Made by a program: the position numbers and the translations under genes. From positions 1-34,484 of the forward strand of contig NZ_FLUY01001786.1 of the NCBI RefSeq assembly GCF_900092655.1: a DNA stretch of 34,484 nt, written 5' to 3'. Shown one piece after another: positions 4,641-23,346 of this stretch (position 1 is its first letter; the number at the start of each line of letters is the position of its first letter). Source of the DNA: Candidatus Thiosymbion oneisti (GTDB lineage: Bacteria; Pseudomonadota; Gammaproteobacteria; Chromatiales; Chromatiaceae). Below the pieces are notes generated by a model. It saw nothing but the letters and a program-made list of their open reading frames with translations, had not been told where the DNA came from and searched no databases.

Positions 4641-7600
4641 ATGTTCCGGTTCTTAGTTCGATCCAGTCTGAGGCTGCGTTTCTTGTTCCTGGTAGCCGCC
4701 GTGGCCTTGATTACCATCGGTTTCGCAAAGCGAGGAGATTTGCCGACCGATCTGTTGCCTGAATTCTCACCACCGATCGTCCAGATCCAGACCGAGGCCC
4801 TGGGGCTGTCGGCCGCCGAGGTCGAGCAGCTGATCACGGTCCCACTAGAAGCGGACCTGCTCAACGGGGTCGCCTGGCTGGATAGGATTCGCTCCGAATC
4901 CATTCCATCCGTGTCATCCATCGAGCTGATCTTCCAGCCCGGTACCGACCTCATGGAGGCGCGGCAGATGGTGCAGGAGAAGCTGACCCAGGCCCATGGC
5001 CTGCCTAACGTCTCCAAGGCACCGGTGATGCTGCAGCCGGTCTCGTCCACCAGCCGCGTACTTAAGGTCGGGCTGCGCTCGGACGAGCTGTCGCTGATCG
5101 AGATGTCGGTATTGGCCCGGTGGAACATCCGCCCCCGCCTGATGGGGGTGCCCGGCGTCGCGCATGTCTCGATCTGGGGCCAGCGCAAGCGTCAGCTTCA
5201 GGTCCACGTGGACCCGGATCGGATCAAGGAGGCGGACGTGGGCCTGCGTGATGTGGTCGCGACCACCGGTAACGCGCTCTGGGTCTCACCGCTGAGCTTT
5301 CTCGATGCGGCCTATCCGGGTACGGGCGGATTCATCGATACGCCCAACCAGCGCCTAGGGGTGCGTCACGTCCTTCCCATCGTTTCGCCGGAGGGCCTGT
5401 CCAAGGTCACCATCGAAGGCAAGGACCAGCGCCTCGGAGATGTGGTCGAGGTGGTCGAGAGTCATCAGCCCCTGATCGGAGACGCCATCGTCGGTAACGA
5501 CAGCGGCATCATGCTGGTCATCGAGAAGTTCCCCTGGGCCAACACCCTCGATGTTACCCGCGGGGTAGAGAAGGCCCTCGATGACCTGCGGCCCGGACTT
5601 ACGGGCGTCGAGATCGACACCGAGATCTTCCGTCCCGCGAGCTTCATCGAGGATGCCGTCGATAACCTGAACACGGCAGTGACGATCGGCATCCTGCTGG
5701 CGGCGATCACGCTCTTGCTGTTCTTCCTCGACTGGCGGATGACCCTGATCGTGGTCATATCCACCGCGACTTCCCTCATGGTGGTCTGGTTTGTGCTGTT
5801 CCTCACCGGCGCTAGGCTGGACATCCTGGTCTTGACGGGGATCATGACGGCGGCAGGCGTCATCGTGCACGACGCCGTCCTGGATACGCATGCCATCCGC
5901 CACCGCCTTGCCGGTGAGCGACCGGAGGGCAAGGGGGTCTGGACGGCCATCCTCGATGCGGCTTCCGAGATGCGGGGGACCATGGCCTCCGCCACCCTGG
6001 TCGTCTTGCTGCTGGTGCTGCCGTTCCTCTTCGTTTCCGGGGTCCTGGGTGCGTTCTTCCACTCGGTCGGTCTGTATTACGCGATCGCGGTCGTCGCCTC
6101 GCTGGCCGTCACCTTGCTCTTGACCCCGGCGTTGTGCCTGTTGATCCTCCCCAAGGACCCCCGTGAGATCCGGCATTCCCCACTCTCGAAGGCACTGCAG
6201 GGATCGACCAAGAAGATCGCCGAGGGCTTTTCCGCCGCCTCCGGCAAGGTCTATGCCATTGCGGGTGTCGCCCTGCTCGCGGTGGCGGTGGGCATCCCGT
6301 TCGTGCATTCGGATCAATTGGTCCCCGAGTTTCGGGAACGTGACCTGTTGATCCAGTGGAACGCCAAGCCGGGCACGTCCCAGCCGGCCATGAGCCGCAT
6401 TACCGGTGAGTTGGTGCGGGAGTTGGGCGAGATTCCGGGGATCGACAACGTCGGCGCCCATGTCGGCCGTGCGGTGACCTCCGACCTGATCGTCGGGATC
6501 AACGCCTCCCAGGTCTGGGCCAATGTGGATCCGGAGGCAGACTACAACGCCACACTGGCGGCAGTGGAGTCGACCATTGACGGTTATCCGGGGCTCGATG
6601 TGGATCTGACCACCTACTCGGAAGAGCGCATCGCCGCGGTCCGGGTCGAGGAGGACGACAAGCTCGTGGTGCGGGTCTATGGGCAGGACACCGATGTCTT
6701 GGCGCGGGAGGCCCAGAAGGTCAAGGATGTGCTGGGTAACATCGAGGGTATCGCCGAGCTCGAGATCAAGGGTACCCCGATCGAGCCGACAGTGGAGATC
6801 CAAGTAGACCTGGAGCGCGCGCAGGAGTACGGCATCAAGCCGGGTGATGTGCGACGGGCCGCCGCGACCCTGCTCTCGGGCTTGGAGGTGGGGAGCCTGT
6901 TCGAAGAAAAGAAGGTCTTCGACGTCGTGGTTTGGGGTACGCCGGATACCCGTTCCAGCCTGTCCGACATTAAGAATCTCTTGATCGAAACCCCGACCGG
7001 GCAATACATCCGGCTCAAGCAGGTCGCGGATGTGGGTATCAAGCCCCATCCGACCGTGATCCGTCGCGAGGGCGTAGCGCGCTATGTGGATGTGGAGGCC
7101 GACATCTTCGGGCGCGGGATCGCCGAGGTGGCCAATGAGATCCAGACCCGTCTCGAGGCCTATTCCTTCCCCCTGGAGTACCACGCGGAGGTCCTGGGCG
7201 ACTACCGGTTCTTCGCCGCCGGGAAGCAGCAGGTCCTGGCCGCGGTCCTCACCGCGCTGATCGGTATTTTCCTGGTGATCCAGGCGGCCTTGCGCAGCTG
7301 GCGGTTGGCCGCAGTCCTGGTGCTGAGTCTGCCGGTCTCGGTGCTCGGCGGGATCCTGGTGGTGCTGCTCGCCGGTGCTGAGTTCTCACTCGGCTCACTC
7401 CTGGGTCTGCTGTTGGTCACGGCCTTGGCCGCGCGGCTCGCCATCAAGCTGTACCTGCACTTCGAGTATCTGGAGCGCCGGGAGGGGCTAGCCTTCGGTG
7501 CGGAGCTGGTGGCCCGCGGCACCTTTGAAAATGCCATCCCCGCCGTCGCCGCCATCCTGGTCACCGCCGCCGCTTTGCTGCCGTTCGCCTTGCTGCATAA

Positions 7601-7775
7601 CAGTGCCGGTATGGAGATTGCCGGACCCTTGGCCGGCGCCGCACTCGGCGGATTGGTAACCACCCTGGGGATGACCCTGTTCGTGCTGCCCTTGCTGTAT
7701 CTCGGCTTCGGGACCGAGGCCAGGTCCGAAGAGGATTTCGAGAACCTGCTGGAGGCCGTTCCCGATGAAAAGTGA
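4641..7775 (+). CDS. RND efflux permease with degenerate proton relay
   Basis: A 1044-residue RND-superfamily inner-membrane permease of the heavy-metal (CusA/CzcA-like) type: TM1 at the N-terminus, a large periplasmic domain, TM2-6, a second periplasmic domain, TM7-12. ATG 4641 is chosen because AAGGAG lies 9 bases upstream; an in-frame TTG at 4620 is less likely. Key residues are missing. Where the sister pump has [10 protein letters not shown] in TM4, this protein has VHDAVLDTHA, with His410 and His417 replacing the relay Asp and Glu. In TM10 the usual AARNGIM is AARLAIK, Leu933 replacing Asn. The frame is open throughout, so this looks like divergence rather than decay. It probably works as a partner subunit with the downstream permease, or with altered coupling. 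Substrate unknown. Confidence 0.85.
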   Translation: MFRFLVRSSLRLRFLFLVAAVALITIGFAKRGDLPTDLLPEFSPPIVQIQTEALGLSAAEVEQLITVPLEADLLNGVAWLDRIRSESIPSVSSIELIFQPGTDLMEARQMVQEKLTQAHGLPNVSKAPVMLQPVSSTSRVLKVGLRSDELSLIEMSVLARWNIRPRLMGVPGVAHVSIWGQRKRQLQVHVDPDRIKEADVGLRDVVATTGNALWVSPLSFLDAAYPGTGGFIDTPNQRLGVRHVLPIVSPEGLSKVTIEGKDQRLGDVVEVVESHQPLIGDAIVGNDSGIMLVIEKFPWANTLDVTRGVEKALDDLRPGLTGVEIDTEIFRPASFIEDAVDNLNTAVTIGILLAAITLLLFFLDWRMTLIVVISTATSLMVVWFVLFLTGARLDILVLTGIMTAAGVIVHDAVLDTHAIRHRLAGERPEGKGVWTAILDAASEMRGTMASATLVVLLLVLPFLFVSGVLGAFFHSVGLYYAIAVVASLAVTLLLTPALCLLILPKDPREIRHSPLSKALQGSTKKIAEGFSAASGKVYAIAGVALLAVAVGIPFVHSDQLVPEFRERDLLIQWNAKPGTSQPAMSRITGELVRELGEIPGIDNVGAHVGRAVTSDLIVGINASQVWANVDPEADYNATLAAVESTIDGYPGLDVDLTTYSEERIAAVRVEEDDKLVVRVYGQDTDVLAREAQKVKDVLGNIEGIAELEIKGTPIEPTVEIQVDLERAQEYGIKPGDVRRAAATLLSGLEVGSLFEEKKVFDVVVWGTPDTRSSLSDIKNLLIETPTGQYIRLKQVADVGIKPHPTVIRREGVARYVDVEADIFGRGIAEVANEIQTRLEAYSFPLEYHAEVLGDYRFFAAGKQQVLAAVLTALIGIFLVIQAALRSWRLAAVLVLSLPVSVLGGILVVLLAGAEFSLGSLLGLLLVTALAARLAIKLYLHFEYLERREGLAFGAELVARGTFENAIPAVAAILVTAAALLPFALLHNSAGMEIAGPLAGAALGGLVTTLGMTLFVLPLLYLGFGTEARSEEDFENLLEAVPDEK

Positions 7776-7884
7776 TCCGTTGAAGGCAAGGCGTATGGGC
7801 GCGACCGGCGGGGACCTGCGTGGTCCCCGGGTCGCGGACGGGCCAAGCAATGGGCAATTTCGGAACCGAACAGGAGAGTACAAG

Positions 7885-8328
7885 ATGAAAATGCAGCGCT
7901 TCAATCGATGGATGACGATGGCAGCAATTCCGGCAACCGCCCTGTTGCTCGCCGGGTGTGGGGACTCGTCCCACGATGCGGAACACCACAAGATCCACCC
8001 GGCAACCGTGGAGCCCAGCGGGGATTCGGGCATTAGCCGGATCACCTTGACCGACCGGGCGGCGGAGCGTCTGGGCATTCAGCTGGCCGAGGTGACCCGG
8101 CAGGGTGACCGGCTCGTCGCCCCCTACGGCGCGCTGCTCTATGACGCCGGGGGCGGCGAGTGGGTCTACGCCAGCCCCCAGCCCATGGTCTTTAAACGGG
8201 CCAGGGTCGAGGTCGACCGCATCGAGGGCGATCAGCTCTACCTGCACACGGGTCCCGAGCCCGGCACCCAGGTCGTGATCGTCGGCGCGCCCGAGCTGTT
8301 CGGGGCCGAGTTCGAGATCGGGCATTAG
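7885..8328 (+). CDS. Mini RND periplasmic adaptor lipoprotein
   Basis: A 147-residue lipoprotein: a signal peptide ending in the lipobox LLLAGC, a short His-rich segment (SHDAEHHKIH), then a domain matching the C-terminal part of RND adaptor subunits (TLTDRAAERLGIQLAEV, LLYDAGGGEWVYASPQPMVF, VDRIEGDQLYL, ELFGAEFEIGH). The alpha-hairpin, lipoyl and most of the barrel domain found in 350-500 residue adaptors are absent, so it is not a standard membrane fusion protein. ATG 7885 is supported by AGGAG upstream. It sits between the two permease genes and is probably co-transcribed with them. It may stabilise the permease trimer or bind metal through its histidines; both are inferences. No outer-membrane TolC-type gene is nearby. 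Confidence 0.78.
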   Translation: MKMQRFNRWMTMAAIPATALLLAGCGDSSHDAEHHKIHPATVEPSGDSGISRITLTDRAAERLGIQLAEVTRQGDRLVAPYGALLYDAGGGEWVYASPQPMVFKRARVEVDRIEGDQLYLHTGPEPGTQVVIVGAPELFGAEFEIGH

Positions 8329-8338
8329 TATGGAAGAT

Positions 8339-8415
8339 TTAGCCGCAAATGAACGCAAAAAACGCAAATTCGGAATCGATTCAATTTGCGTCCATTTGCG
8401 TTTATTTGCGGCTAA
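8339..8415. repeat. Long palindrome inside the RND operon
   Basis: A 32-base left arm (8339-8370, beginning TTAGCCGCAAATGAACGC) is nearly the reverse complement of the right arm 8383-8415, with a 12-base centre. It would form a strong RNA hairpin between the adaptor and second permease genes. It is built from AACGCAAAT units, like dispersed repeats seen in other environmental genomes. It could limit readthrough or protect the upstream transcript. Confidence 0.85.
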
Positions 8416-8458
8416 AAAATGTCAACAGCCCCTGGATCCATCCACGGAGGACTGAGCC

Positions 8459-11400
8459 ATGATGCGCTGGCTGGTTGGGACCAGTCTGAGGTTCCGGTTT
8501 ATCGTCATCGCCATCGCGGCCGCGATGGTGTTCTTCGGTGTCGGGCGCCTGCGCCAGATGCCGGTCGATGTCTTCCCTGAGTTCGCACCGCCGATGGTGG
8601 AGATTCAGACCCCCTGTCTGGGTCTGACCCCCGAGGAGGTGGAGGACCTGGTGACCGTCCCGCTGGAAGAGGCACTGGCCGGCGTGGACGGGCTGGACGT
8701 GATGCGCTCCAGGTCCGTGCCCCAGCTGTCGGCGGTCAAGCTGATCTTCAAGCCCGGCACCGACCTGCTGCATGCCCGCCAGGTGGTGCAGGAACGGGTG
8801 GATATGGTCACGCCCTCGATCCCGGCCTGGGCCAGTCCGCCGGTCATGGTGCCGCCCTTGTCGGCCACCAGCCGCACCATGAAGATCGGCCTCTCTTCAC
8901 AGGAGCACTCGGTCATCGACCTGTCGATGATCGCCTACTGGAAGATCCGCCAGAAGCTCCTGGACGTGGAGGGGGTGGCGAACGTCGCCATCTGGGGTGA
9001 GCGCCTGCAGATGCTCCAGGTCCAAGTGGACCCGGCGCGTCTCAAAGAGAACGGCGTCACCCTGAACCAGGTCATGAAGACCACGGCGGACGCGCTGGAC
9101 TCCGGCCTGCTGCCCTGGTCCGATGGGGCCGTGGTAGGCACCGGCGGCTTCATCGATACCCCGAATCAGCGCCTCCACATCCGCCACATCTTGCCGATTC
9201 TGAGCCCGGAGGACCTGGCGGAGCTGCCCATCAAGGATACCGGCGGCGAGGTGCTGCGCCTGGGTGACGTGGCGGAGGTCCTGGAGGACCACCAGCCGAT
9301 GATCGGCGACGGGATCATCAACGACGAGGTGGGGCTGCTGCTGATCGTCGAGAAGTTCCCCTGGGCCAACACCCTGGACGTCAGCCTGGGGGTCGAGGAG
9401 GTCCTGGCCAAGATCAAACCGGGGCTACCCGGCATCGAGATCGATCACGAGATCTTCCGCCCGGCCACCTTCATCGAGCTGTCCATCGAGAACCTGACCA
9501 CGGCGCTCCTGATCGGCTGCGTCCTGGTGATCCTGATCCTCGGCGCCTTCCTGTGGGAGTGGCGGGTGGCCCTTATCAGCATCGTCGCCATTCCGCTGTC
9601 GCTGATCGCGGCCGGTATCGTGCTCTATTGGCAGGGGGCGACCATCAACACCATGGTCCTGGCCGGCTTCGTCATCGCCCTGGGGGCGGTGGTCGACGAT
9701 GCCATCATCGGCATCGAGAACATCATGCGGCGTCTGCGTCAACACCGCGCGACTGGCAGTGCCTACTCGGCAGGCAGGATTATCCTCGACGCCACGATCG
9801 AGGTGCGGAGCGCGATCGTCTACGCCACCCTGATCGAGGTCGCCGCCTTGATCCCGGTGTTCTTCATGGAAGGGCTGTCCGGGGCCTTTTTCAAGCCCCT
9901 GGCCTGGGCCTATGTGCTGGCCATCTTCGCCTCCATGGTGGTGGCGCTGACGGTGACCCCGGCGCTGGGTTTCATCCTGCTCAGAAAGGCGCCCCTGGAG
10001 CGGCGTGAGTCGCCGCTCATCAAGCCCTTGCAGGCCGGCTACGGTCGGGTGATGTCCGGACTCCTCAAGACCCCGGTCATCGCCTATTCCACCCTGGGCG
10101 TCATGTTTCTCGCCGGGATCCTGATCGTACCCCAGCTCGGTCAGTCCCTGTTGCCGTCCTTCAAGGAGCGGGACTTCCTGATGCACTGGCTGACTAAGCC
10201 CGGCACTTCCTGGCCGGAGATGAACCGGATCACCATCCAATCCAGCAAGGAGTTGCGCGCGATCCCAGGGGTTCGCAACTTCGGCGCCCACATCGGTCAG
10301 GCCCTCATCATGGACGAGGTGGTCGGCATCTACTTCGGGGAGAACTGGGTCAGCGTCGATCCCGCCGTGGACTATGACGAGACGGTAGCTAAGATCCAGG
10401 AAGTCGTCGACGGCTATCCGGGGCTCTATCGCGACGTGCTGACCTACCTCAAGGAGCGCATTCGGGAGGTGCTGACGGGGGCCCACGAGGCCATCACGGT
10501 ACGCATCTTCGGCCACGACCTGCACGTGCTGCGCGAGCAGGCCGAGGCGGTCGAGGCGGCCCTGAAAGGTACCCCCGGACTCAAAGAGCTGCACGTCTCG
10601 CTGCAGACCGAGCAGCCCCAGATCGACGTGGAAGTGGATCTGGAGAAGGCGCAGCAGTACGGGCTCAAGCCGGGTGATGTCCGCCGTGCGGCGGGAGTCA
10701 TCGTCGCCGGTCTGGAGGTCGGCGATATCTTCCGCGGCGGCAAGGCCTACGATGTACAGATCTGGGGCGTTCCCGAGGTGCGCAACAGTGTGACCGACAT
10801 CGAGAACCTGCTGCTCGACACCCCCAGCGGCGAGCAGGTGCGACTGGCCGATGTAGCACGGGTTGAGATTAAACCGACACCCAATGTGGTCAAACGCGAG
10901 AATATGCAACGGCGCATCGACGTCGGCGGCAATGTGGAGGAAGGCGTTGCCTTGAGCACCGTGGCCGAGGAAGTCGCGCGGCGCCTCGCAACCGTCGAGT
11001 TCCCGACCGGTTACTACCCGGTGCTGCTCGGCGAATATGCGGAGCGCCAGGCCGCGGAAGGACGCCTGCGGGTGTTTACCCTGTTGGCCGCTGCGATCAT
11101 CCTCCTGCTCCTGCACACCTCATTCAAGCGTTGGACGCTGGCGCTGATGGCCTTTCTGGCCTTCCCCACCGCCTTGGTCGGCGGCATCATCGCCGCCTAC
11201 ATGGGCGGCGGCATCGTCTCCCTCGGCTCCCTGGTGGGCTTCCTTACGGTACTCGGTATTGCTGCCCGCAACGGCATCATGATGATCAGCCACTTCCAAC
11301 ACCTGGAGCTGCATGAGGGTGAGACCTTCAGTATTGATCTCATCATGCGCGGTGCGCGGGAACGGTTGGCACCGATCCTGATGACGGCGCTCACCACCGG

Positions 11401-11605
11401 GCTGGCCCTGCTGCCCCTCGTTATCGCCGGGGACATCGCCGGGCACGAGATCGAGTACCCCATGGCCGTGGTCATCCTCGGGGGATTGGTCACCTCGACC
11501 TTGCTCAACCTGTTCGTGATCCCGGCGCTCTACCTGCGCTTCGGCAAGGGCTCCACACGGGCACCGGAACGGATCGGAAGGGAACCGGCACCGGTTGCCG
11601 GTTGA
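8459..11605 (+). CDS. RND efflux permease (CusA/CzcA-like)
   Basis: A 1048-residue RND permease, similar along its length to the first permease of the operon: shared stretches include [24 protein letters not shown] and [13 protein letters not shown]. Unlike that protein it keeps the expected motifs: [10 protein letters not shown] in TM4 (Asp413, Asp414, Glu420) and [12 protein letters not shown] in TM10 (Asn938). It is therefore the likely energised subunit. ATG 8459 follows CGGAGG by 8 bases. The family exports metal ions or small molecules from the periplasm or inner membrane; the substrate cannot be read from the sequence. Expected partners would be a full adaptor and an outer-membrane channel, neither of which is in the window. 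Confidence 0.9.
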
Positions 11606-12053: not shown

Positions 12054-12345
12054 ATGGGTAAACCGATTTCCTGGGCGGAGTCGAAAAACGAGCAACTACG
12101 CCGTCGGCATGGGATAGGTATTCGAGGAGGTCGTCATCGCCTTGGGACAAGGACGGTTACTCGACCATCGGGAACATCCGAATCGGGATCGATACGGACA
12201 TCAGAAGCAGCTGGTGGTCGAAATAGGAGGTTATGCCTACGTGGTCTCCTATGTCGAAGACCACAAAAAGCGGTTTTTCAAGACGTTTTTCCCCAGCCGC
12301 AAAGATACCCGTGACTATTTACTGACACCCGGCAGCCATGAGTAA
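12054..12345 (+). pseudogene. Small toxin-family gene, frameshifted
   Basis: Joining two frames gives one protein of about 96 residues: MGKPISWAESKNEQLRRRHG, then FEEVVIALGQGRLLDHREHP, then a core with YGHQ, YAYVVSYVED and FFKTFFPSRKDTRDYL. This matches small RelE/BrnT-like toxins that are encoded just before a CopG/Arc-like antitoxin. One extra base near 12120 separates the halves, so the gene is inactivated unless the base is a sequencing error. The stop overlaps the start of the next gene by 8 bases, as in live modules. Confidence 0.55.
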
Positions 12346-12550
12346 ACCAAAATTACCGCGGGTCTTAACACGCGAAGACTTTGACAGCGACGAGGAATTC
12401 GCGCTCTACCAATCGAGTGAGGCGGGAGAATGGGTCTCTACCCGAGACCGGAACCTACAGCGGCAGGGATGGAAGAAATCGGCGCTACGGACGATGAATG
12501 GGACTCGATCGCGCGGTTCCCGTGCGGTGCCGCAACGGAATCTTTTGTAG
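12338..12550 (+). pseudogene. Truncated antitoxin partner
   Basis: The N-terminal part (EDFDSDEEFALYQSSEAGEW followed by KKSALRTM) resembles the CopG-like antitoxins that follow this toxin type. The family normally continues with a ribbon-helix-helix region of the KDxRxNIRLS type, which is absent: after RTM the sequence becomes NGTRSRGSRAV and stops. The 3' half has been lost, possibly with the repeat rearrangement just downstream. The overlap with the toxin frame supports the assignment. Confidence 0.45.
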
Positions 12551-12617: not shown

Positions 12618-13295
12618 ATGCGACCACAGCTTCCTATTGTGGCAGTAGTCACATGTGCGCTTGCCTCAGCCGGCTTGGTTCAGGCCGACGACCGATTCGA
12701 CACGGCCAAGCTCTATCTGGAGCGGAACGTGGCCGACGGCGATGCCGAGGTCGTCATTGAGGCCAAAGGTGATGACGAGGGACTGTCGGTCCTGACCCTC
12801 GTAGCGCCGGACGGCCGCACGCTGGTCGACTTCCAGGTCCCCGAAGGCAAGCTCGGCATCCGATCCGTCAAGTTGGAATCCCCGGAGCCGGAGGACGATG
12901 GCCGCGTCCAGGCCGACTTTCCGGCGGGCGACTACGGCTTCACCGGTATCACCATGGACGGAGACCGGATAAGCGGCAGCGGTACCTTGAGCCACCGGTT
13001 GCCGCCGCCGGTATCCTTCCTCGTCCCGAAGGACGAGCAGGAGGACGTTCCGGCAGCCGGGTTGAAGGCGCAGTGGAAGCCGCTTGAAGGCATCGAGAAA
13101 TACGTCTTGATCCTGGAGGACGAAGCGGCCGACCTGGCGATCGAAGCCGAGCTCCCCGGCAATGCGTTCTCATTTGAGATCCCGAACGGCTGGATGAAGC
13201 CGGATACGGACTACAAGCTGGCCGTCGGATCGGTCGCACCGGACGGCAATCGCTCATTCGTCGAGATCGAGTTCGAGACCGCTCAGACGCAATAG
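12618..13295 (+). CDS. Secreted protein of unknown function
   Basis: A 225-residue protein with a signal peptide (MRPQLPIVAVVTCALASAGL, cleavage probably after VQA). The mature part is acidic and beta-rich. Residues from about 130 on (PVSFLVPKDEQEDVPAAG, LKAQWKPLEGIEKYVLILED, GWMKPDTDYKLAVGSVAPDG) resemble a fibronectin type III-like fold. ATG 12618 is chosen because the signal peptide begins there; the longer upstream frame is repeat sequence. The Shine-Dalgarno is weak (TAGG) and comes from the second copy of the 13-bp repeat. I do not recognise the family; a periplasmic or extracellular binding role is a guess. Confidence 0.7.
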   Translation: MRPQLPIVAVVTCALASAGLVQADDRFDTAKLYLERNVADGDAEVVIEAKGDDEGLSVLTLVAPDGRTLVDFQVPEGKLGIRSVKLESPEPEDDGRVQADFPAGDYGFTGITMDGDRISGSGTLSHRLPPPVSFLVPKDEQEDVPAAGLKAQWKPLEGIEKYVLILEDEAADLAIEAELPGNAFSFEIPNGWMKPDTDYKLAVGSVAPDGNRSFVEIEFETAQTQ

Positions 13296-14832: not shown

Positions 14833-15687
14833 TTATCGTTGCTGCGCCGGTTCGACCTTGCCGAAAATCTCCGGCAAGAACTTGACGGCGTTCGCTTCGA
14901 TCCGTCGGGCCTCTTTTCGGACCTCTGCAAGTTCTTCTTCGGAGAGCTTCTCGACGCTGATCAGCTCCATCTGCTCCTGGGTGGTGTCGTCGCCGGAGAA
15001 ACCGATCTTGATATTTCCGACGCCGCGGGCGTAGTACTTGTATTGGCGCGCGTTCGGTTCCTCTCGGTCATGTTCCGCAAAGACGATTACATCTTCAAAG
15101 GTGCCATAACCGGTCTCTACTTTGACGCCGGTCTTATGGACCATCGCGCGGTCGGTCCATGGCACATTGGGCGCCCAGCCTTGCGAGAATTCTGGGTCAC
15201 CCAGCTTGGGGTCCGCCGGCATCATGATGCCTGCGTGTCCGTTGATGCCATGCAGCCATCCGGGAGTAGCATTTATCTTGCCATCTTCGTATTCCTCCGG
15301 GTATTGGCCGAGGTGCCAGATGGTGCCGTCGTTGGCCTGGGCGAAGAACACGATCTCGGCCTCCTCCAGCTCGCCGTCTTTGTAATCTCTATCCCAGTTG
15401 ACTCTGGTCTCGACGCCGCCGATCACCTTGGTTAGATCCGTGACGACAAAGACGACCCGGTGCGGCTCGACAACCCCTTCCTCATCCACCGTGGTACCCT
15501 CCCATACTTGGCGTGTGCCGGGCTCGAGCGGAAACCAAGGATTGGCAATCTTGGTCGGGTTGCTGAATTTAGCTGAAGCGAAATCTTCGTATGGTTTCTG
15601 CTCCTCGCCGGAGACAGGCATGACCGAGGCAGCACTTACCAGGGCCAGTGCGGCAAACGTGGAAGGGTACGAGATTTGTCGATTCAT
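14833..15687 (-). CDS. Secreted protein, paralogue of the PepSY-bearing protein
   Basis: A 284-residue exported protein (signal peptide with AALALVSAASVMPVSG) of unknown function. It shares a layout with the protein at 22211-23290: NPWFPLEPG against NPLYFPLKPG near the start, AGIMMPADPKLGD against PGLLMPAEFKIGD in the middle, and YYARGVGNIK against WWCKGVGIIK near the end. It lacks the PepSY-like C-terminal domain and ends instead in a charged helix. ATG 15687 follows AGGAG by 8 bases. The beta-rich, Trp/Tyr-rich layout suggests a periplasmic or surface binding protein; no catalytic motif is visible. Confidence 0.72.
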   Translation of the reverse strand: MNRQISYPSTFAALALVSAASVMPVSGEEQKPYEDFASAKFSNPTKIANPWFPLEPGTRQVWEGTTVDEEGVVEPHRVVFVVTDLTKVIGGVETRVNWDRDYKDGELEEAEIVFFAQANDGTIWHLGQYPEEYEDGKINATPGWLHGINGHAGIMMPADPKLGDPEFSQGWAPNVPWTDRAMVHKTGVKVETGYGTFEDVIVFAEHDREEPNARQYKYYARGVGNIKIGFSGDDTTQEQMELISVEKLSEEELAEVRKEARRIEANAVKFLPEIFGKVEPAQQR

Positions 15688-16187: not shown

Positions 16188-16209
16188 ATGATAGCATGAA
16201 TGCGATCAT
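16188..16209. promoter_or_regulatory. Candidate FitA operator palindrome
   Basis: ATGATAGCAT and ATGCGATCAT are inverted repeats (9 of 10 matching) separated by two bases. The left half contains TGATAGCA, which as I recall is the half-site bound by neisserial FitAB. It touches the stop codon of the ABC transporter gene and lies upstream of the antitoxin. Confidence 0.45.
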
Positions 16210-18173
16210 CAATGCCGGAAGGCCTCCACCGGCTCCAGCCGTGCGGCCCGTAGCGCCGGATAGGTCCCTGACAAGAGGCCGATTGCGCTGCCTACGACGG
16301 GTGCCAGGAAGGGTACAGAGGGGTCCAGTACCGGTGTCCAGACCTGGTAGGCCGAGACGGCGATGACCACCAGGACGCCCAGGCTGGCGCCGATGATGCC
16401 GCCGACGGCGCCCATGGAGGCGCTCTCGAGCAGAAATTGGATCGCGATATGGCTGCGGGTGGCACCGATCGCTCGGCGCAGGCCGATCTCGGGGGTGCGC
16501 TCCATGACCCCCACCAGCGTGATGTTGGCGATGCCGATGGCGCCGACGATGAGGGACAGGCCGCCGAGCAGCAGGAACATGACATCCAGGTCCGTCTGTA
16601 CCTCGTCGCGGACGCGCTTCGGCTCCTGGGGTACCTCCACCTTGAGGACCCGCGGGTTGTCCGGACGCAGCGCCAAAGGTGCCTGTTCCGCAATCAGATA
16701 GGCGGCGCCGATCCTGGTCTCGACCACTAGCGTACCGGGCCCGGCCAACGCGAAGTATTTGCGGGCCGTCCCCTCGGGAATGATGACGGACCCGAGCAGC
16801 TCCGGCTTGCGCACCAGATCGCGCAATATGCCGATAATCAGATAGCGGTGATCGCCGAGGGCGATCGCCGGCAGCTGATTGAGCCCCTTGATCCCGAGCC
16901 GGCGTGCGGCATCCGGTCCCAGGACGGCGACCCGCTCGGCGCTGTCCGAATGCCCGCGATCGAACAGCCGTCCGCTTTGGAGCTCGGCGCGGACGGCGGA
17001 GAACAAGCTGGGTGATGCGGCGTGAATGGCCATCTTCACGGCGGTCGGATGCAGCGGGTCCTTGACCGGCGAGGCGCTCACCAGCCTATCTCCCACCTCG
17101 ACCTGACTCAGGTTACCCACGCGCTCGACGCCGTTGAGCCGCAGTAACCGCTGGGGCGCATCCCAAGGGATCGCCCTGGGATCGACGATTCCTGTCGTGC
17201 GTCCCGGCCGGGCGCTGATGAAGAGCTCGGTAGCGGCGAGCGCGTCGAACTGGCTGATGATGCGATTGCCCGCGGTCCTGGTCAGCCCGATAGTCGCCAC
17301 CAGCGCCGTGAGCCCGATCACGACCCCCAGGACCGTCAACAGCATGCGTCCGGGTCTGGCCAACATGCCGGCCACCGCCTCCGTGAGCATGTCCCGGACG
17401 GTAATGCCGGAGCGTGAAGCCGCCCGCCCGCCCCCGCTGCTGAAGGCTTCGGAGGGAGGCGGCCCGGTTTCCCCGGGTGTAAGATCCGTCAGGCGCCCGT
17501 CGACGATATGCACCCGTCGCGGGGCCCGGTCGGCAACCTTCGGGTCGTGGGTCACGATCACCAGGGTCAGGCCCTCCTGGTTCAGCTGCTCGAACAGATC
17601 CATGATCGCGGTGGAGTTCTTCGAGTCCAGATTGCCCGTGGGCTCGTCGCAGAGTAGCAGGCTCGGTGAGCCGACGATGGCGCGGGCGATGGCTACCCGC
17701 TGACGTTCGCCGCCGGAGAGCCGGGTCGGCATATACTCCAGGCGGTGCCCGAGCCCCACTCGCTGCAGGGCGGTGATGGCCCGTTCGCGCCGTCCGGCTT
17801 GGGGCCGGTTACGGTAGACCTCCGCCAACATGACGTTTTCGAGCACGCTGCGATAGGCCAGGAGGTGAAACGACTGGAAGACGAACCCGATCCGCCGGCT
17901 GCGCACGCCCGCCCGTTCCCGATCCGTCAAGCTCGTGGTGTCGATACCGTCGATGTGGTAGGTGCCCGCCGTCGGCCGGTCCAGACAACCGAGGATATTG
18001 AGCAGCGTCGACTTACCGGAGCCTGAGGGCCCGGTAATCGCCACCCAATCGCCCTGATCGATGCCCAGGTGGATATCCGTGAGGGCATGGATGGGAGGCT
18101 CGGTGCCGTACCGGCGTCCGATGCCGGCCAGATCGAGTACACGGCGCGAGCGATCGGTCTCCGATCGGGTCAT
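16209..18173 (-). CDS. MacB-like ABC transporter, ATPase-permease fusion
   Basis: A 654-residue fusion typical of MacB. Residues 10-235 are the ATPase: Walker A GPSGSGKST at 48-56, a Q-loop in VFQSFHLL, signature LSGGERQRVAIARA, Walker B LLLCDEPTGNLDS. After a linker comes a first transmembrane helix (LLTVLGVVIGLTALVATIG), a periplasmic MacB domain, and three C-terminal helices of the FtsX type (LSLIVGAIGIANITLVGVMERTPEIGLRRAIGA). Such pumps drive export of macrolides, peptides or lipids from the periplasm through an adaptor and a TolC-like channel. The start overlaps the adaptor stop by 4 bases (ATGA), so the two form one operon. Substrate unknown. Confidence 0.9.
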   Translation of the reverse strand: MTRSETDRSRRVLDLAGIGRRYGTEPPIHALTDIHLGIDQGDWVAITGPSGSGKSTLLNILGCLDRPTAGTYHIDGIDTTSLTDRERAGVRSRRIGFVFQSFHLLAYRSVLENVMLAEVYRNRPQAGRRERAITALQRVGLGHRLEYMPTRLSGGERQRVAIARAIVGSPSLLLCDEPTGNLDSKNSTAIMDLFEQLNQEGLTLVIVTHDPKVADRAPRRVHIVDGRLTDLTPGETGPPPSEAFSSGGGRAASRSGITVRDMLTEAVAGMLARPGRMLLTVLGVVIGLTALVATIGLTRTAGNRIISQFDALAATELFISARPGRTTGIVDPRAIPWDAPQRLLRLNGVERVGNLSQVEVGDRLVSASPVKDPLHPTAVKMAIHAASPSLFSAVRAELQSGRLFDRGHSDSAERVAVLGPDAARRLGIKGLNQLPAIALGDHRYLIIGILRDLVRKPELLGSVIIPEGTARKYFALAGPGTLVVETRIGAAYLIAEQAPLALRPDNPRVLKVEVPQEPKRVRDEVQTDLDVMFLLLGGLSLIVGAIGIANITLVGVMERTPEIGLRRAIGATRSHIAIQFLLESASMGAVGGIIGASLGVLVVIAVSAYQVWTPVLDPSVPFLAPVVGSAIGLLSGTYPALRAARLEPVEAFRH

Positions 18174-19930
18174 GGTGGAAGGCTGGCACCCGGATTCCCG
18201 ACGCCGACCACGACCAATTCGCCGGGGTTCAAGGCTCCGGCGATCGGGATGACCGCGACGAAGCCGTCCGCTGACATCCCCGGTTTCACCACCACATATT
18301 CCAGTGCGCCGCCGCGTTCGACCTGGATGCGCGAGGTATCGTCCGCGGACAGGGACAGGGCGCTGGAGGGCACGGCGATGACCTCGCCTGCGGTCGATTC
18401 GATGGGGATGGTCAAGCGCAGGGAGAAGCCCTCCAGTTTCATGGTCGTTTCTTCGACGGCGACCTCGAAGTAAAAGTGGAAGCCATCGACCCCGCGGGTC
18501 CCCGGCCTATCGGCCACGAATTTGACCAAGCCGGTGGCCGTGACGCCCAGCGCCTGCTCGTCGATCCGGACCTGCATGCCGGGTCGGACCAAAGGCGCGG
18601 TCTCCAGCGGCAGCGACGCGTCGATCGAGAGCCGGTTGTCGGTTACGGACATGAGGGTACCGGTCGCCGCATCGCCGACGGCCGCCTGAATCGCTTCGAC
18701 CCGCACCGGGAGCGCGGGCAGAAACACGAGCTCGTCGACCGGTACCTGGATGCCGAGCTTACTACGGGCCTGCTCCAGTTTGGCACTCAGACGGGAGACC
18801 CGCCTGGCCACCAGGTTGGCCTCGAATTCTGCGATCTTGCGTGCATCCATGGCCGCTCGAATCGCCCGTTTGCCGTCGAGGGCGGCAGACTTGACGGCCG
18901 CCTCCGCGGATTTGATCGCGGCATCGGCGGAACCTACTCCCAGGGTCCCGGAGCTGGATTCGCGCTGCGCCCGGCGAATCGCCAGCTCGCCCTCCACCCG
19001 GGCCTGCTCGAGGGCGGCCTGGGCCAGCTTGAGATTGGCCTCCGCGGCCTCGCGGGCCGTCTTCGGCTGGCGTGGGTCCAGCACGATCCGGGCCCGCTCG
19101 GCGACCTTTGCGGCCACATCGGCCTTGGCGACCTCCAGAGCGGCCTTCGCCTGGGCCTTTGCCGCTTCTATGCTCAGGGCCCGGTCCTTGGTCGAGGCAG
19201 CGGCGAGCCCCCGCCGGTCCGCGCGGCGGGCCGCCAGCGCTGCCGCCGCGGCGCTGTTGTTGGCTTCTGCGCTGGCACGGGCGGCCTTTACCTCCAAGCC
19301 GGCCGCGGAGAGGGCCGCCGCGGCCGCGAGCTCGGCCTTGCGTGCATCCTCCCACGCCTGCTCGATCGAGCGCATGGCAGCGGTTTGTTCTCGGGTGGGA
19401 CCGAACGGCTCCCAACCCCGAGACTCGTACCAGTGGGCCACGGCAGTGCTGGTCCGTTGGTCATAGGCCCCGTCCGCCGGACCTGGGTCGAAGCCCAAAC
19501 GCATAAGCGCCGCCTCCAATTGGCGGACATCTTCCCCCGCGCTACCGGGAACCAGGTCACGATAGGCCGGTAGCTTGCCTTGCAGAATGAAAACGGGGCG
19601 ACCCGAGGCCGTGAGCAGGACGGCACTTTCCTCCAGCTGGGTATTGCGCACCGGCAGGGTGGAAATCAGGCTGGGACCGGCCTTGAGGTTGGAAGGTGCG
19701 ATGGAGACGGGTTGCGGCAGCCCGAACCTGGCCGTGCCTCGGGTCACGATTTCAGTGCTCAGTACGCGCTTCTCGATAGGAACCAAGATCGGCGACGGCT
19801 TGGGGGGTGCGGTGCGGGCGGCGGCATCCGCCGGAGATTCGATCTTGGATCCGGCGATCCAGCCCACCGTCGCGGCCATGGCGACCACTGCCACCGCACC
19901 GGCCAAAACTGCAACTCGTTTCCCTGCCAT
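18170..19930 (-). CDS. Periplasmic adaptor with peptidoglycan-binding domain
   Basis: A 586-residue HlyD/MacA-type adaptor for the MacB-like pump. Residues 5-27 are an N-terminal membrane anchor. Around 130-170 is a PG_binding_1-like domain (PGSAGEDVRQLEAALMRLGF, DGAYDQRTSTAVAHW). From about 180 to 400 is an Ala/Lys/Glu-rich coiled-coil hairpin, unusually long. The C-terminal 170 residues are the barrel and membrane-proximal domains (VRPGMQVRIDEQALGVTATG, ESTAGEVIAVPSSALSL). The peptidoglycan domain could tether the pump to the cell wall. A dispersed repeat ends only 8 bases before the ATG, so the normal leader seems to have been replaced and the Shine-Dalgarno is poor. Confidence 0.85.
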   Translation of the reverse strand: MAGKRVAVLAGAVAVVAMAATVGWIAGSKIESPADAAARTAPPKPSPILVPIEKRVLSTEIVTRGTARFGLPQPVSIAPSNLKAGPSLISTLPVRNTQLEESAVLLTASGRPVFILQGKLPAYRDLVPGSAGEDVRQLEAALMRLGFDPGPADGAYDQRTSTAVAHWYESRGWEPFGPTREQTAAMRSIEQAWEDARKAELAAAAALSAAGLEVKAARASAEANNSAAAAALAARRADRRGLAAASTKDRALSIEAAKAQAKAALEVAKADVAAKVAERARIVLDPRQPKTAREAAEANLKLAQAALEQARVEGELAIRRAQRESSSGTLGVGSADAAIKSAEAAVKSAALDGKRAIRAAMDARKIAEFEANLVARRVSRLSAKLEQARSKLGIQVPVDELVFLPALPVRVEAIQAAVGDAATGTLMSVTDNRLSIDASLPLETAPLVRPGMQVRIDEQALGVTATGLVKFVADRPGTRGVDGFHFYFEVAVEETTMKLEGFSLRLTIPIESTAGEVIAVPSSALSLSADDTSRIQVERGGALEYVVVKPGMSADGFVAVIPIAGALNPGELVVVGVGNPGASLPP

Positions 19931-21216: not shown

Positions 21217-22095
21217 CTACTTGACCTCGCGTGCAAACAGCTCCTTCTCGATCGCTGCTTCGACGGGGTCGAAGAGCTCCTCCGCCAAGTGGAAGTTCAT
21301 GGCCGCGGCGCGGCGTTCCTCAGCCTGGAGCTTCTTGAATGCCTTGATCTGCTCGGGCGTCATGTCCTCCACCCGCAGGGTACCATTTTTGGTCAACGCA
21401 GCGAGACGCTCGCGGATATCCGGCTCCACCTCATCCGGGTGGTTGTAGTCCAGACCCATGGTACGCATCTGTGCGGCGTACTTACGAAGGGCCTTTCTCA
21501 TGCGTGGGTCCTTGTTGATAAGGGCATCCTTGGGGTTGTAATAGCTCGCCTGCAGCTGGTCCTCGGTGAAGACCTGGCCGATCGCATCGCGGGTGCATCC
21601 GCCCGTGCGCGAGAAGTTCTCGCCCTCGATGGCGACCGCGAAGCTCTCGCCGGGATTCTCCCCGAACAGGGCGCGGTTATAGGCGACCTGATCGGCCGCG
21701 GAGAGGTTCTTGAAAATCCCCACGTTGCGCTCGCCGAGACCGATCTTTGCAGGGCTGTAACCCGCGGAGAGCTGCGGCGCTTGCCCCGTGTAGAAGGTCG
21801 AGACGCCGAAGCCGTAGCGGTCGATGAAGTCCTCTTCGCTCATCCCGGGCAGGGTCTTGTCCGCGGACATTCCCTTGCGAACGGTGGTGTAATCGGCAGC
21901 GACATACTCGAATCCCTGGCCGCGCATGCACTTGGCGATCAGGGCCTCGACCCGGTCGATGGCCTGGACGAGCTCCCGCGGGGTCAATCCAAATTCTTCG
22001 GTGCCGGGCCTGGGCGCCGGGTCCGCGGCCTGAACAGCGAAGGCGAACGGCAGGCCAACGAGGATGGATAAAATGGTTGGGGTAGTTTTTTTCAT
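21217..22095 (-). CDS. Secreted protein of unknown function
   Basis: A 292-residue exported protein with a signal peptide (MKKTTPTILSILVGLPFAFA, cleavage near VQAAD). The mature protein is mostly helical and charged, with two cysteines (AKCMRGQGFEYV and TGGCTRDAIG) that could pair. It contains YVAADYTTVRKGMSAD, EEDFIDRYGFGVSTFY and a C-terminal EEELF-like helical tail (LAEELFDPVEAAIEKELFAR). I do not recognise the family. It lies 115 bases downstream of the PepSY-bearing secreted protein on the same strand and may share its transcript. A GAGAGA stretch precedes the ATG. Confidence 0.7.
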   Translation of the reverse strand: MKKTTPTILSILVGLPFAFAVQAADPAPRPGTEEFGLTPRELVQAIDRVEALIAKCMRGQGFEYVAADYTTVRKGMSADKTLPGMSEEDFIDRYGFGVSTFYTGQAPQLSAGYSPAKIGLGERNVGIFKNLSAADQVAYNRALFGENPGESFAVAIEGENFSRTGGCTRDAIGQVFTEDQLQASYYNPKDALINKDPRMRKALRKYAAQMRTMGLDYNHPDEVEPDIRERLAALTKNGTLRVEDMTPEQIKAFKKLQAEERRAAAMNFHLAEELFDPVEAAIEKELFAREVK

Positions 22096-22210: not shown

Positions 22211-23290
22211 TCAGTTATCCGTACCGACGATCTCGCCCGTCTCGATGTCGACGAAGACATCCCATTCTACGCCGTCTTTCGCGCCGATGATCTCGACGGC
22301 GTAGACATTGTGGTCGCCCTTGCGCTCGATCTTCACCGAGTTGACCTCACCCGGGATCTTCTTCAGCGCGATCTCCGAGGCCTGGAATCCGTCGATCTTG
22401 GCGACCGGCGCATCGATCTTCTGCACAGGATTCTTATGGAATTTGCCGAATTCCGTGACCTTTTTGCCGGGAAGTCCGTCGGATTCGACCAGCTCGCCGT
22501 CGGAGGTGTCCTTGATGATTCCCACGCCCTTGCACCACCACTTATCGGTGATGTCGTCAGGGTCGGTGATATTGAACTCGCGTACCTTCACGCAGTCCTT
22601 GAAGGTACCGGCCGGGACCTTCATGGTCAGTCCCTCTTCCCGGTTCTCGGAGTAGCCGTGGGCCTCCAGCTCGTGGGCCTCGTAGAGATACTTGTCTCCA
22701 ATCTTGAACTCGGCGGGCATCAGCAGGCCGGGCTCGGCGATGCCGTTGCCGTCGGGCTCACCGACGCGCCAGGTGCCGGCAAAGATCTTGCGGCCCGCGT
22801 GATCGACCTCCCAGCTCAGCTCGCCGAATGCATACACGGCGTTGGTAGTCTTGTCGATGGCAAACCAGTTGAGCGCCTGCTGAGTCCAGACGCCGTCGAA
22901 GAACTCCTCCTCCTGGACGACGGCCGCTTCGAACTTGCCGAATCCGGGGACATCGAACGGCTCGGTCTCGTCGAGAACGATGACCTCTTTCCTGTAATAG
23001 CCGTTCTTACTGTCGGGATACTCCATGACGAACTTGAAGCCTGGCTTGAGTGGGAAATAGAGTGGATTGTGGCCTCTCGGGGACAGGTTTTCGGCCTTCA
23101 CCCCCCATTCCTTGAGGCCGGTGACCCCGCTTAGATCGGGTTTCTCCGCGCCTTTGGCGGCAGGGCTACCCGCCATCGCGACCGCCGTACCCCCTAAGAA
23201 TCCGAGCGCGGCAAATGCCAGGGCACAGGACCGAAAAGTAGGAGCGGTAAAGGGTGTCTTATTCTCGGGAATCGTTATTGCAGAACGCAT
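22211..23290 (-). CDS. Secreted protein with C-terminal PepSY-like domain
   Basis: A 359-residue exported protein. The signal region (CALAFAALGFLGGTAVAMAG) is preceded by an extended basic N-terminus; ATG 23290 is chosen because GGAGA lies about 8 bases upstream. The central part is shared with the protein at 14833-15687 (NPLYFPLKPG, PGLLMPAEFKIGDKY, WWCKGVGIIKD). The last 60 residues (FQASEIALKKIPGEV, then DHNVYAVEIIGAKDG and VFVDIETGEIVG) fit a PepSY domain, a small periplasmic module often linked to protease inhibition. Function unknown; a surface or periplasmic sensor or scaffold is possible. Confidence 0.72.
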   Translation of the reverse strand: MRSAITIPENKTPFTAPTFRSCALAFAALGFLGGTAVAMAGSPAAKGAEKPDLSGVTGLKEWGVKAENLSPRGHNPLYFPLKPGFKFVMEYPDSKNGYYRKEVIVLDETEPFDVPGFGKFEAAVVQEEEFFDGVWTQQALNWFAIDKTTNAVYAFGELSWEVDHAGRKIFAGTWRVGEPDGNGIAEPGLLMPAEFKIGDKYLYEAHELEAHGYSENREEGLTMKVPAGTFKDCVKVREFNITDPDDITDKWWCKGVGIIKDTSDGELVESDGLPGKKVTEFGKFHKNPVQKIDAPVAKIDGFQASEIALKKIPGEVNSVKIERKGDHNVYAVEIIGAKDGVEWDVFVDIETGEIVGTDN

Positions 23291-23322
23291 GCTCATTCTC
23301 CATGCAATGCAAGAATTTAGGA

Positions 23323-23346
23323 CCCCGACCCTCATTCCGGTCGGGG
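23323..23346. promoter_or_regulatory. Perfect 8-bp palindrome upstream of the PepSY gene
   Basis: CCCCGACC and GGTCGGGG are separated by eight bases, 33 bases before the start codon. In the transcript this would form a GC-rich hairpin in the 5' leader; as DNA it could be an operator. Confidence 0.4.

What the first reader, a model, noticed from the sequence alone, without database searches (positions are those of the whole stretch)
4641..11605. Asymmetric RND pump pair: one permease has lost the proton relay
Two full-length, similar RND permeases sit in one operon. The second keeps [10 protein letters not shown] (TM4) and AARNGIM (TM10). The first has VHDAVLDTHA and AARLAIK at the same places, so the relay Asp and Glu are both His and the TM10 Asn is Leu, yet the frame is open over 1044 codons. 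Heteromeric RND trimers (MdtBC) are known; a partner that has lost the relay would be an inactive or differently coupled subunit.
Basis: partly seen in the sequence, partly recalled or inferred. Interest (0 to 1): 0.62.

Follow-up and report, generated by a model that had tools for sequence, protein, structure and literature searches.

The report
Paired efflux pump, one motor lost
Two sister pump proteins are inherited side by side in very different bacteria, one with its proton-driven motor intact and the other with the motor worn away but much of the rest of its body carefully preserved, which suggests that the two work together as one lopsided pump and gives a natural test of how such pumps turn.

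Summary
RND-A (4641-7775) is an open, full-length RND permease, 44% identical to RND-B (8459-11605). RND-B keeps everything. This is not private decay. A and B are two arms of one old duplication, found side by side in Chloroflexota, Pseudomonadota and a Latescibacterota genome, with a short lipoprotein that is only the membrane-proximal domain of an adaptor. Across the family A is conserved like B in its N-terminal periplasmic half but diverges about twice as much in the membrane. Core relay loss is not family-wide: 14 of 19 A proteins keep it. But in one distant genus 14 of 14 A proteins carry Asp407His beside an intact B, with dN/dS 0.14. A and B share an 11-residue insertion in the loop that in AcrB enters the neighbouring subunit, with A/B-specific letters. 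Best reading: a hetero-oligomeric RND pump in which B supplies the energy and A is an unenergised porter/docking subunit. The mixed trimer is inferred, not shown.

The parts
4641..7775 (+). RND-A, relay-poor RND permease, 1044 aa (P0001)
   Evidence: open frame; PF00873 483 bits; A clade of 20 rows, SH-aLRT 99
5868..5873 (+). RND-A H410 (AcrB D407) and D411 (AcrB D408, kept)
5889..5894 (+). RND-A H417 (AcrB E414) and A418 (AcrB N415)
7434..7439 (+). RND-A R932 (AcrB K940, charge kept) and L933 (AcrB N941)
7530..7553 (+). RND-A N964 (AcrB R971) to A971 (AcrB T978)
5253..5333 (+). RND-A residues 205-231: inter-subunit loop of the docking domain with the 11-residue insertion, A-type W214-x-S216-P217-L218 ... 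P226
7885..8328 (+). mini-adaptor lipoprotein, 147 aa (P0003): signal and lipobox Cys (by eye), then a membrane-proximal domain only
   Evidence: alignment of 18; model pLDDT 84; VIA Z 13.1 to CusB in CusBA and 12.9 to ZneB
8459..11605 (+). RND-B, relay-intact RND permease, 1048 aa (P0002)
9695..9718 (+). RND-B D413, D414 to E420 (AcrB D407, D408, E414), intact
12618..13295 (+). secreted-looking 225-aa protein; relatives (45-50% identity) downstream of RND-B in 14 of 14 g239 genomes with the pair, and a weaker one (32%) on the other strand beside the pair in L090; no Pfam or NCBIfam match
14833..15687 (-). 284-aa secreted-looking protein (P0004); relatives lie beside the RND pair in L078, L082, L084, L086, L087, L088, L089/L127, L098 and L129 (and a weak one beside a single pump, L094)
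16209..18173 (-). MacB-type ABC transporter, 70% identical to the one beside the pair in g239 (L126)
18170..19930 (-). 586-aa protein with PG_binding_1; its reading as an adaptor for the ABC transporter is mine (P0007); relatives beside the pair in g239 and G905
21217..22095 (-). 292-aa secreted-looking protein (P0005), 60% identical to the g239 neighbour
22211..23335 (-). 374-aa PepSY-domain protein (P0006), 57% identical to the g239 neighbour

Best explanation
RND-A and RND-B are the two dedicated subunits of one hetero-oligomeric RND pump. SHOWN by sequence: both descend from one duplication, are kept adjacent across phyla, share an insertion in the inter-subunit loop with partner-specific residues, B is unchanged at the proton relay in every copy examined, A is relaxed in the membrane core but not in the N-terminal periplasmic half, and in the window and in genus g239 A has lost residues whose loss is reported to disable AcrB. 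INFERRED: A and B assemble into a mixed trimer; B alone binds and releases the protons; A follows B's movements mechanically and supplies periplasmic surface (docking, substrate path); the 147-aa lipoprotein sits on the periplasmic face as a membrane-proximal-domain-only adaptor that steadies or stimulates the pump without reaching an outer-membrane channel. The pump therefore probably moves its substrate only across or out of the inner membrane, or hands it to a second exporter such as the MacB-type ABC transporter that shares its gene neighbourhood. The substrate is unknown.
For: One duplication: A clade (20 rows) SH-aLRT 99, B clade (18 rows) 98, A+B 99, single pumps (8 rows) outside; a smaller careful tree gives 100/99 for the split between A and B. 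Kept together: 17 of 20 A loci carry the mini-adaptor and B on the same contig and the other 3 run off the contig end; 14 of 14 g239 genomes with a match have both A and B, next to each other. B unchanged: D407, D408, E414, N415 in 19 of 19, TM10/TM11 residues in 17 of 17 that reach that far; single pumps 8 of 8. Contrast in divergence (A distance / B distance, same loci, 66 locus pairs): N-terminal periplasmic half 0.91, TM2-6 1.68, C-terminal periplasmic half 1.36, TM8-12 2.02; the TM ratios exceed the N-terminal ratio in 66 of 66 pairs, and in 28 of 28 pairs of 8 loci whose A keeps the core relay. Selection: dN/dS of relay-poor A in g239 0.143 overall, 0.080 in the N-terminal half, 0.19 in the membrane parts against 0.12 for B. 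Interface: 11-residue insertion in 18 of 18 A and 16 of 16 B, 0 of 8 single pumps, 0 of 8 outgroup RNDs, and not in CusA, MdtB or MdtC; A has W/F214, S216, P226 where B has D/E, G, and I/V/T (one P). In AcrB a long loop there inserts into the neighbouring subunit, and D407A, D408A, K940A and T978A disable the pump (PMC4303003, passages). Precedent for divided labour: MdtB2C, where relay mutations in MdtB hurt more than in MdtC and substrates are thought to bind mainly MdtC (PMC4338810, passages).
Against: No direct evidence of a mixed trimer. Most A proteins (14 of 19) keep the five core relay residues, so a division of labour need not be general; and in the early-branching pair L083 A and B are most alike in the membrane (67 and 79%, against 55 and 64% in the periplasmic halves), the MdtB/MdtC pattern, so the reversed pattern of the window is not shared by every pair. 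RND-A keeps D411 and R932, so some proton binding is not excluded. Covalently linked AcrB trimers lose activity when one protomer's relay is mutated (PMC4403515, PMC8277102 and PMC3925222, passages), so a pump with a relay-poor subunit would have to work differently from AcrB. The shared insertion could also serve two separate homotrimers that specialised after duplication. The window's own copy has no close relative (best 52% identity), so its own dN/dS could not be measured.
Confidence: 0.6

Rival explanations
1. A and B form separate homotrimers; A3 is no longer a proton-driven pump but a sensor, regulator or passive gate that keeps its periplasmic body.
For: A keeps its periplasmic N-terminal half under strong constraint while its membrane core diverges; nothing here shows contact between A and B.
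Against: Strict pairing of A with B, and the shared insertion in the inter-subunit loop with A- and B-specific letters, are better explained by assembly with each other.
Confidence: 0.2
2. A is still an active, differently coupled transporter: His410 (and His417 in the window) with Asp411 and Arg932 form a new proton or metal site.
For: His at the D407 place is fixed in 14 of 14 g239 A proteins and occurs in the window; D408 is kept in 20 of 20 A proteins and a basic residue at 940 in 19 of 19.
Against: H417 is not shared (g239 has Glu or Asp there); R971 and T978 are lost as well in the window; substitutions at E414 and N941 across A proteins are of many kinds (H, V, R, G, A, D; L, S, G, H, Q), which looks like relaxed constraint rather than a new site.
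Confidence: 0.17
3. RND-A is a decaying pseudogene.
For: Many relay residues are gone; frames of A are split in L085 and L090.
Against: Open over 1044 codons with a coding GC pattern like B; complete RND fold predicted; the relay-poor A of g239 has dN/dS 0.14.
Confidence: 0.03

Closest known systems
MdtBC (E. coli) and MuxBC (Pseudomonas), two-permease RND pumps
   Same: Two paralogous RND permeases from one old duplication, encoded together; MdtB2C is reported to be the active form and unequal roles are reported (PMC7015380, PMC12802153, PMC4338810, passages).
   Different: Both MdtB and MdtC keep D407, D408, E414, K940, R971 and T978 and are most alike in the membrane part (TM 62-70%, periplasmic 42-43%); in the window it is the reverse (TM 36-39%, periplasmic 56 and 44%), though not in the pair L083. 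MdtB and MdtC lack the 11-residue loop insertion. mdtA is a membrane fusion protein gene of 1248 bp, against 444 bp here.
CusA/CzcA (HME) RND permeases
   Same: Best NCBIfam model TIGR00914 and best solved relatives ZneA and CusA.
   Different: Both window permeases score below the TIGR00914 cut-off (340 and 563 against 701 bits); CusA has a single TM4 Asp and E939 at the K940 place.
Single RND pumps closest to this family (Hymenobacter plasmids L076, L077; L091-L096)
   Same: 40-43% identical to A and 51-55% to B; same DD...E and R-N motifs as B.
   Different: One permease, intact relay, no loop insertion; a long adaptor frame next door in 7 of 8 (393-558 codons stop to stop; none recognised in L095), and in both Hymenobacter records looked at a TolC gene too.
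BesA-type adaptors without the alpha-hairpin (Borrelia)
   Same: Adaptor lacking the part that meets TolC (PMC3807786, abstract).
   Different: [quoted passage not shown] the mini-adaptor keeps only the membrane-proximal domain.

Membership tests
RND superfamily (PF00873) | Match over the curated cut-off along the whole protein and an RND fold | tested here: met
   483 and 733 bits against 28; RND-A model TM 0.84-0.88 to CusA
HME / CusA-CzcA family (TIGR00914) | Score over the NCBIfam cut-off of 701 bits | tested here: not met
   340 (A) and 563 (B) bits
Active proton-driven RND permease | TM4 DD, TM10 Lys/Arg, R971, T978 (AcrB numbering) | tested here: not met
   RND-A: H, D, R, N, A. RND-B meets all five.
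MdtBC-type heteromeric RND | Two paralogous permeases encoded together, from a duplication | tested here: met
   probably a different duplication from MdtB/MdtC, which lack the shared loop insertion and were not in the tree
MdtBC-type heteromeric RND | Active only as a mixed trimer | not testable with these tools
   no complex prediction or experiment available
MdtBC-type heteromeric RND | Both permeases keep the relay | tested here: not met
Tripartite RND pump | Adaptor with lipoyl, beta-barrel and hairpin domains beside the permeases | tested here: not met
   147-aa lipoprotein with a membrane-proximal domain only; a full adaptor acting from elsewhere in the genome is not excluded
Tripartite RND pump | Outer-membrane factor (PF02321) in the host | tested here: inconclusive
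   found in the window's genome and 6 other non-Chloroflexota hosts, not found in 12 of 12 Chloroflexota hosts of the pair

The most novel reading that the evidence does not exclude
A widespread class of hetero-oligomeric RND exporter, not recognised in the papers searched, in which energy conversion and substrate handling are split between sister subunits: B is the only proton motor and A a mechanically driven pseudo-transporter, held together by a partner-specific inter-subunit loop, served by an adaptor reduced to its membrane-proximal domain, working without its own outer-membrane channel and, in some lineages including the window, alongside a MacB-type ABC exporter.
Probability: 0.4. Interest if true: 0.85.

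Novelty: new variant of a known kind. Interest (0 to 1): 0.72.

Why it matters
The accepted picture of RND pumps is a strict three-stroke rotation in which the protomers work in concert; in linked AcrB trimers one inactivated protomer stops the whole machine (reviews and one paper seen as passages). A naturally maintained partner that has lost relay residues is hard to fit into that picture and makes it directly testable with native proteins: how many energised protomers does an RND trimer need, and can one be carried passively? For MdtBC the split between energy and substrate subunits was inferred from mutants; here evolution seems to have carried out the split. The 147-aa adaptor also gives a very small natural version of the adaptor surface that touches an RND pump.

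Tried and rejected
Pseudogene: rejected for the reasons under rivals. Alignment slip at TM4/TM10: rejected, the same residues fall in place against AcrB, CusA, MdtB and MdtC and in alignments of 55 and 54 rows. Another acid taking over in RND-A: D411 is the D408 equivalent and D415 is common at that place in the family; the only acid in the TM10 stretch shown that RND-B lacks is E942, ten residues beyond R932, a place where L034_B also has Glu. Assembly error: the window copy is from a draft genome of 1891 contigs, but relay loss recurs in g239 genomes, 6 of 14 of them single contigs. Single origin of D407H in the window and g239: undecided (best trees separate them, but one clade is not rejected, p-AU 0.332). 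Sites fixed differently in A and in B plus single pumps: none at the thresholds used; the A/B differences in the insertion appear only when B is taken alone, as single pumps have a gap there. Function from neighbours: no Pfam or NCBIfam name for the 225-, 284- and 292-aa proteins. Phylum of the window: no tool names it; Pseudomonadota is my inference, since G385 and G402 are in the same phylum, a g239 protein matches rhizobial plasmids best and the window's RecD matches enterobacterial records best. Literature for a described relay-less RND partner: none recognised in the listings of searches; these cover open-licence PMC papers only. The two primary MdtBC papers are not held and are cited through reviews. 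Rows left out before counts: the tree leaves out L003_O, L004_O, L017_O and the half frame L081a_B; one search uses 19 A rows (without L048_A) and 5 B rows; leave out the partial or split frames L085_A, L090_A, L081a_B, L086_B and L097_B; the locus-pair comparison uses 12 loci in which both frames were complete; the structure alignment of the mini-adaptor leaves out the longer forms of L089 and L097. Homologues were mostly chosen by E at most 1e-180 to RND-A, and each genome search scored only the best few candidates per genome, so more distant A proteins are under-sampled.
Full report
WHAT IS THERE. RND-A (4641-7775, 1044 aa) and RND-B (8459-11605, 1048 aa) lie on the + strand with a 147-aa lipoprotein gene between them (7885-8328). 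They are 44% identical end to end, both match PF00873, and both fall below the cut-off of the CusA/CzcA model TIGR00914. Against E. coli AcrB RND-A reads H410 for D407, D411 for D408, H417 for E414, A418 for N415, R932 for K940, L933 for N941, N964 for R971 and A971 for T978. RND-B has the full set (Arg for K940).

HOMOLOGUES. Searches found the same arrangement elsewhere (counts include the genome searched from). Relatives: 18 of 190 genomes have a match at E 1e-100, but only the window's own and G092 were recognised as the pair (again 2 of 210 in the order at 1e-180). Phylum sample: 3 of 398, the window's own, G385 and G402. Chloroflexota sample: 10 of 350. Latescibacterota: 1 of 80. Gemmatimonadota: 5 of 200, of which G586 has A and the mini-adaptor before its contig ends and 4 are single pumps. 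Order of G582: 2 of 150, G582 and one single pump. An unnamed genus g239 with genomes of mostly 7-10 Mb: 14 of 146. Of 20 A loci, 17 show A, mini-adaptor and B on one contig and 3 run off the contig end; in L081 the order is A, B, mini-adaptor and B holds an in-frame stop. The window's phylum is not named by any tool; I take it to be Pseudomonadota.

TREE. With the TM4, TM10 and TM11 columns left out, all A rows (20) and all B rows (18) form sister groups, with single pumps (8, of which 7 have a recognised long adaptor frame) outside them. One old duplication therefore made A and B. End branches of A are generally longer than those of B.

RELAY RESIDUES. B: no exception at any of the eight positions (19 of 19, or 17 of 17 where the C-terminal half is present). 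Single pumps: 8 of 8. A: D407 17 of 20 (3 His), D408 20 of 20, Glu at 414 in 7 of 20 (acid in 12 of 20), N941 6 of 19, R971 16 of 19, T978 15 of 19; the five core residues together 14 of 19. The five exceptions are the window, G092 (R971Q), G385 and G402 (D407H, T978S and, in G402, R971Q) and G582 (T978S, locus L081): the window's phylum and a genome titled Proteobacteria. The other G582 A (L033) keeps the core. In g239, 14 of 14 A proteins have His at 407, Gln at 941 and Ser at 978, and 12 of 14 Gln at 971, while B is intact in 14 of 14. Whether D407H arose once or twice is open.

A IS NOT JUNK. In g239 the median dN/dS is 0.143 for A and 0.139 for B (91 pairs each); by part, A has 0.080 (N-terminal periplasmic half), 0.191 (TM2-6), 0.116 (C-terminal half) and 0.195 (TM8-12), against B 0.090, 0.119, 0.162 and 0.118 (85-91 pairs). 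Over the 12 loci from all phyla, A is as conserved as B in the N-terminal half (distance ratio 0.91) but 1.68 and 2.02 times more divergent in the two membrane parts. This already holds among A proteins with an intact core relay (28 of 28 locus pairs of 8 loci). Fifty sites are nearly fixed in A but variable in B and single pumps, 37 of them before residue 335. The model of RND-A is a full RND fold. So what selection keeps in A is its N-terminal periplasmic body more than its membrane motor. Against a uniform picture: within one early-branching pair (L083) A and B are most alike in the membrane, as in MdtB/MdtC.

THE INTERFACE. In the stretch aligned to AcrB 196-244, which holds P223, near the tip of the long loop that enters the next subunit in AcrB (PMC4303003, passages), every A (18) and every B (16) examined has 54 residues; every single pump (8) and outgroup RND (8), CusA, MdtB and MdtC have 43, and AcrB has 49. 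Within the insertion A has W (17) or F (1) where B has D or E (16); S (18) where B has G (16); and just after it P (18) where B has I, V or T (15) or P (1). A shared insertion with partner-specific letters in the subunit-linking loop is the best evidence here that A and B meet. It is indirect.

THE ADAPTOR. The 147-aa lipoprotein resembles the two ends of the long adaptors of the single pumps; BLAST aligns mainly the C-terminal end, and the N-terminal match is by eye. Its model (pLDDT 84) matches the membrane-proximal domain of CusB (Z 13.1, 96 residues, rmsd 2.2) and ZneB (Z 12.9, 95 residues, rmsd 1.9) using both ends of those chains, and then AcrA, BesA and MexA; plain Foldseek E-values were weak (best 0.004). 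In G905 and G584 longer forms of 256 and 245 residues keep extra sequence in the middle. TolC-type proteins (PF02321) were found in 0 of 12 Chloroflexota hosts of the pair and in 7 of 7 other hosts. An adaptor without the TolC-reaching parts fits hosts without TolC; its presence in Pseudomonadota then suggests transfer or a TolC-free job. This direction is inference.

NEIGHBOURHOOD. In the window, in the four g239 genomes looked at (G385, G402, G1616, G1643; the ABC gene itself was in reach in three) and in G905 the pair is accompanied by a MacB-type ABC transporter (70% identity window to g239), a PG-binding protein and a 292-aa protein; the window and g239 also share a PepSY protein and the 225-aa protein downstream of B. 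In the window these ABC-side genes are on the other strand and a glycosyltransferase gene (13361-14491) lies between. A 284-aa protein has relatives beside the pair in 9 other loci, and a weak one beside a single pump. The functional unit may therefore be larger than the pump; its substrate is not known.

MECHANISM. Most likely A and B form a mixed trimer in which B converts the proton gradient and A is carried along, giving periplasmic surface. MdtB2C is the nearest precedent (PMC4338810, passages), but there both subunits keep the relay. AcrB experiments with linked trimers say that one inactivated protomer stops the pump (PMC4403515, PMC8277102 and PMC3925222, passages), so if the mixed trimer is real its cycle must differ from AcrB's. 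In 254 Burkholderia RND proteins the G403-D407-E414 motif was reported in every sequence (PMC2891726, passages), which shows how unusual RND-A is.

Noticed in passing
   Followed up: partly
window 8338-8416: An inverted repeat with 22-nt arms, 95% complementary and 35 nt apart, lies between the mini-adaptor and RND-B, perhaps a small mobile or terminator-type repeat.
   Followed up: partly
window 12100-12480: Short reading frames that look like a BrnT/BrnA-type toxin-antitoxin remnant (recalled resemblance, not tested) lie between RND-B and the 225-aa protein.
   Followed up: no
L089 9076-9843 and L097 1702-2436: Longer adaptors (256 and 245 aa) with an acidic stretch in the middle look like intermediates between full adaptors and the mini-adaptor.
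   Followed up: partly
L085, L086, L090, L081: One permease frame of the pair is split (A in L085 and L090, B in L086, B with an in-frame TAG in L081); sequencing error or decay was not decided.
   Followed up: no
L036, L083, L084, L085, L086, L090: A regulator family and a kinase family recur near the pair in these Chloroflexota loci; in the two loci tested (L036, L083) they are a LuxR-type response regulator and a HisKA_3 sensor kinase.
   Followed up: partly
L080 5-2043: Two frames upstream of the pair in a g239 genome look like CobW-type GTPases; the one tested (1063-2043) is cobW, PF02492. A possible hint of a metal link.
   Followed up: partly
window 1202-2575 and 2650-3630, - strand: A Sulf_transp-type membrane protein and a metallo-beta-lactamase-fold protein lie upstream of RND-A on the other strand.
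   Followed up: no
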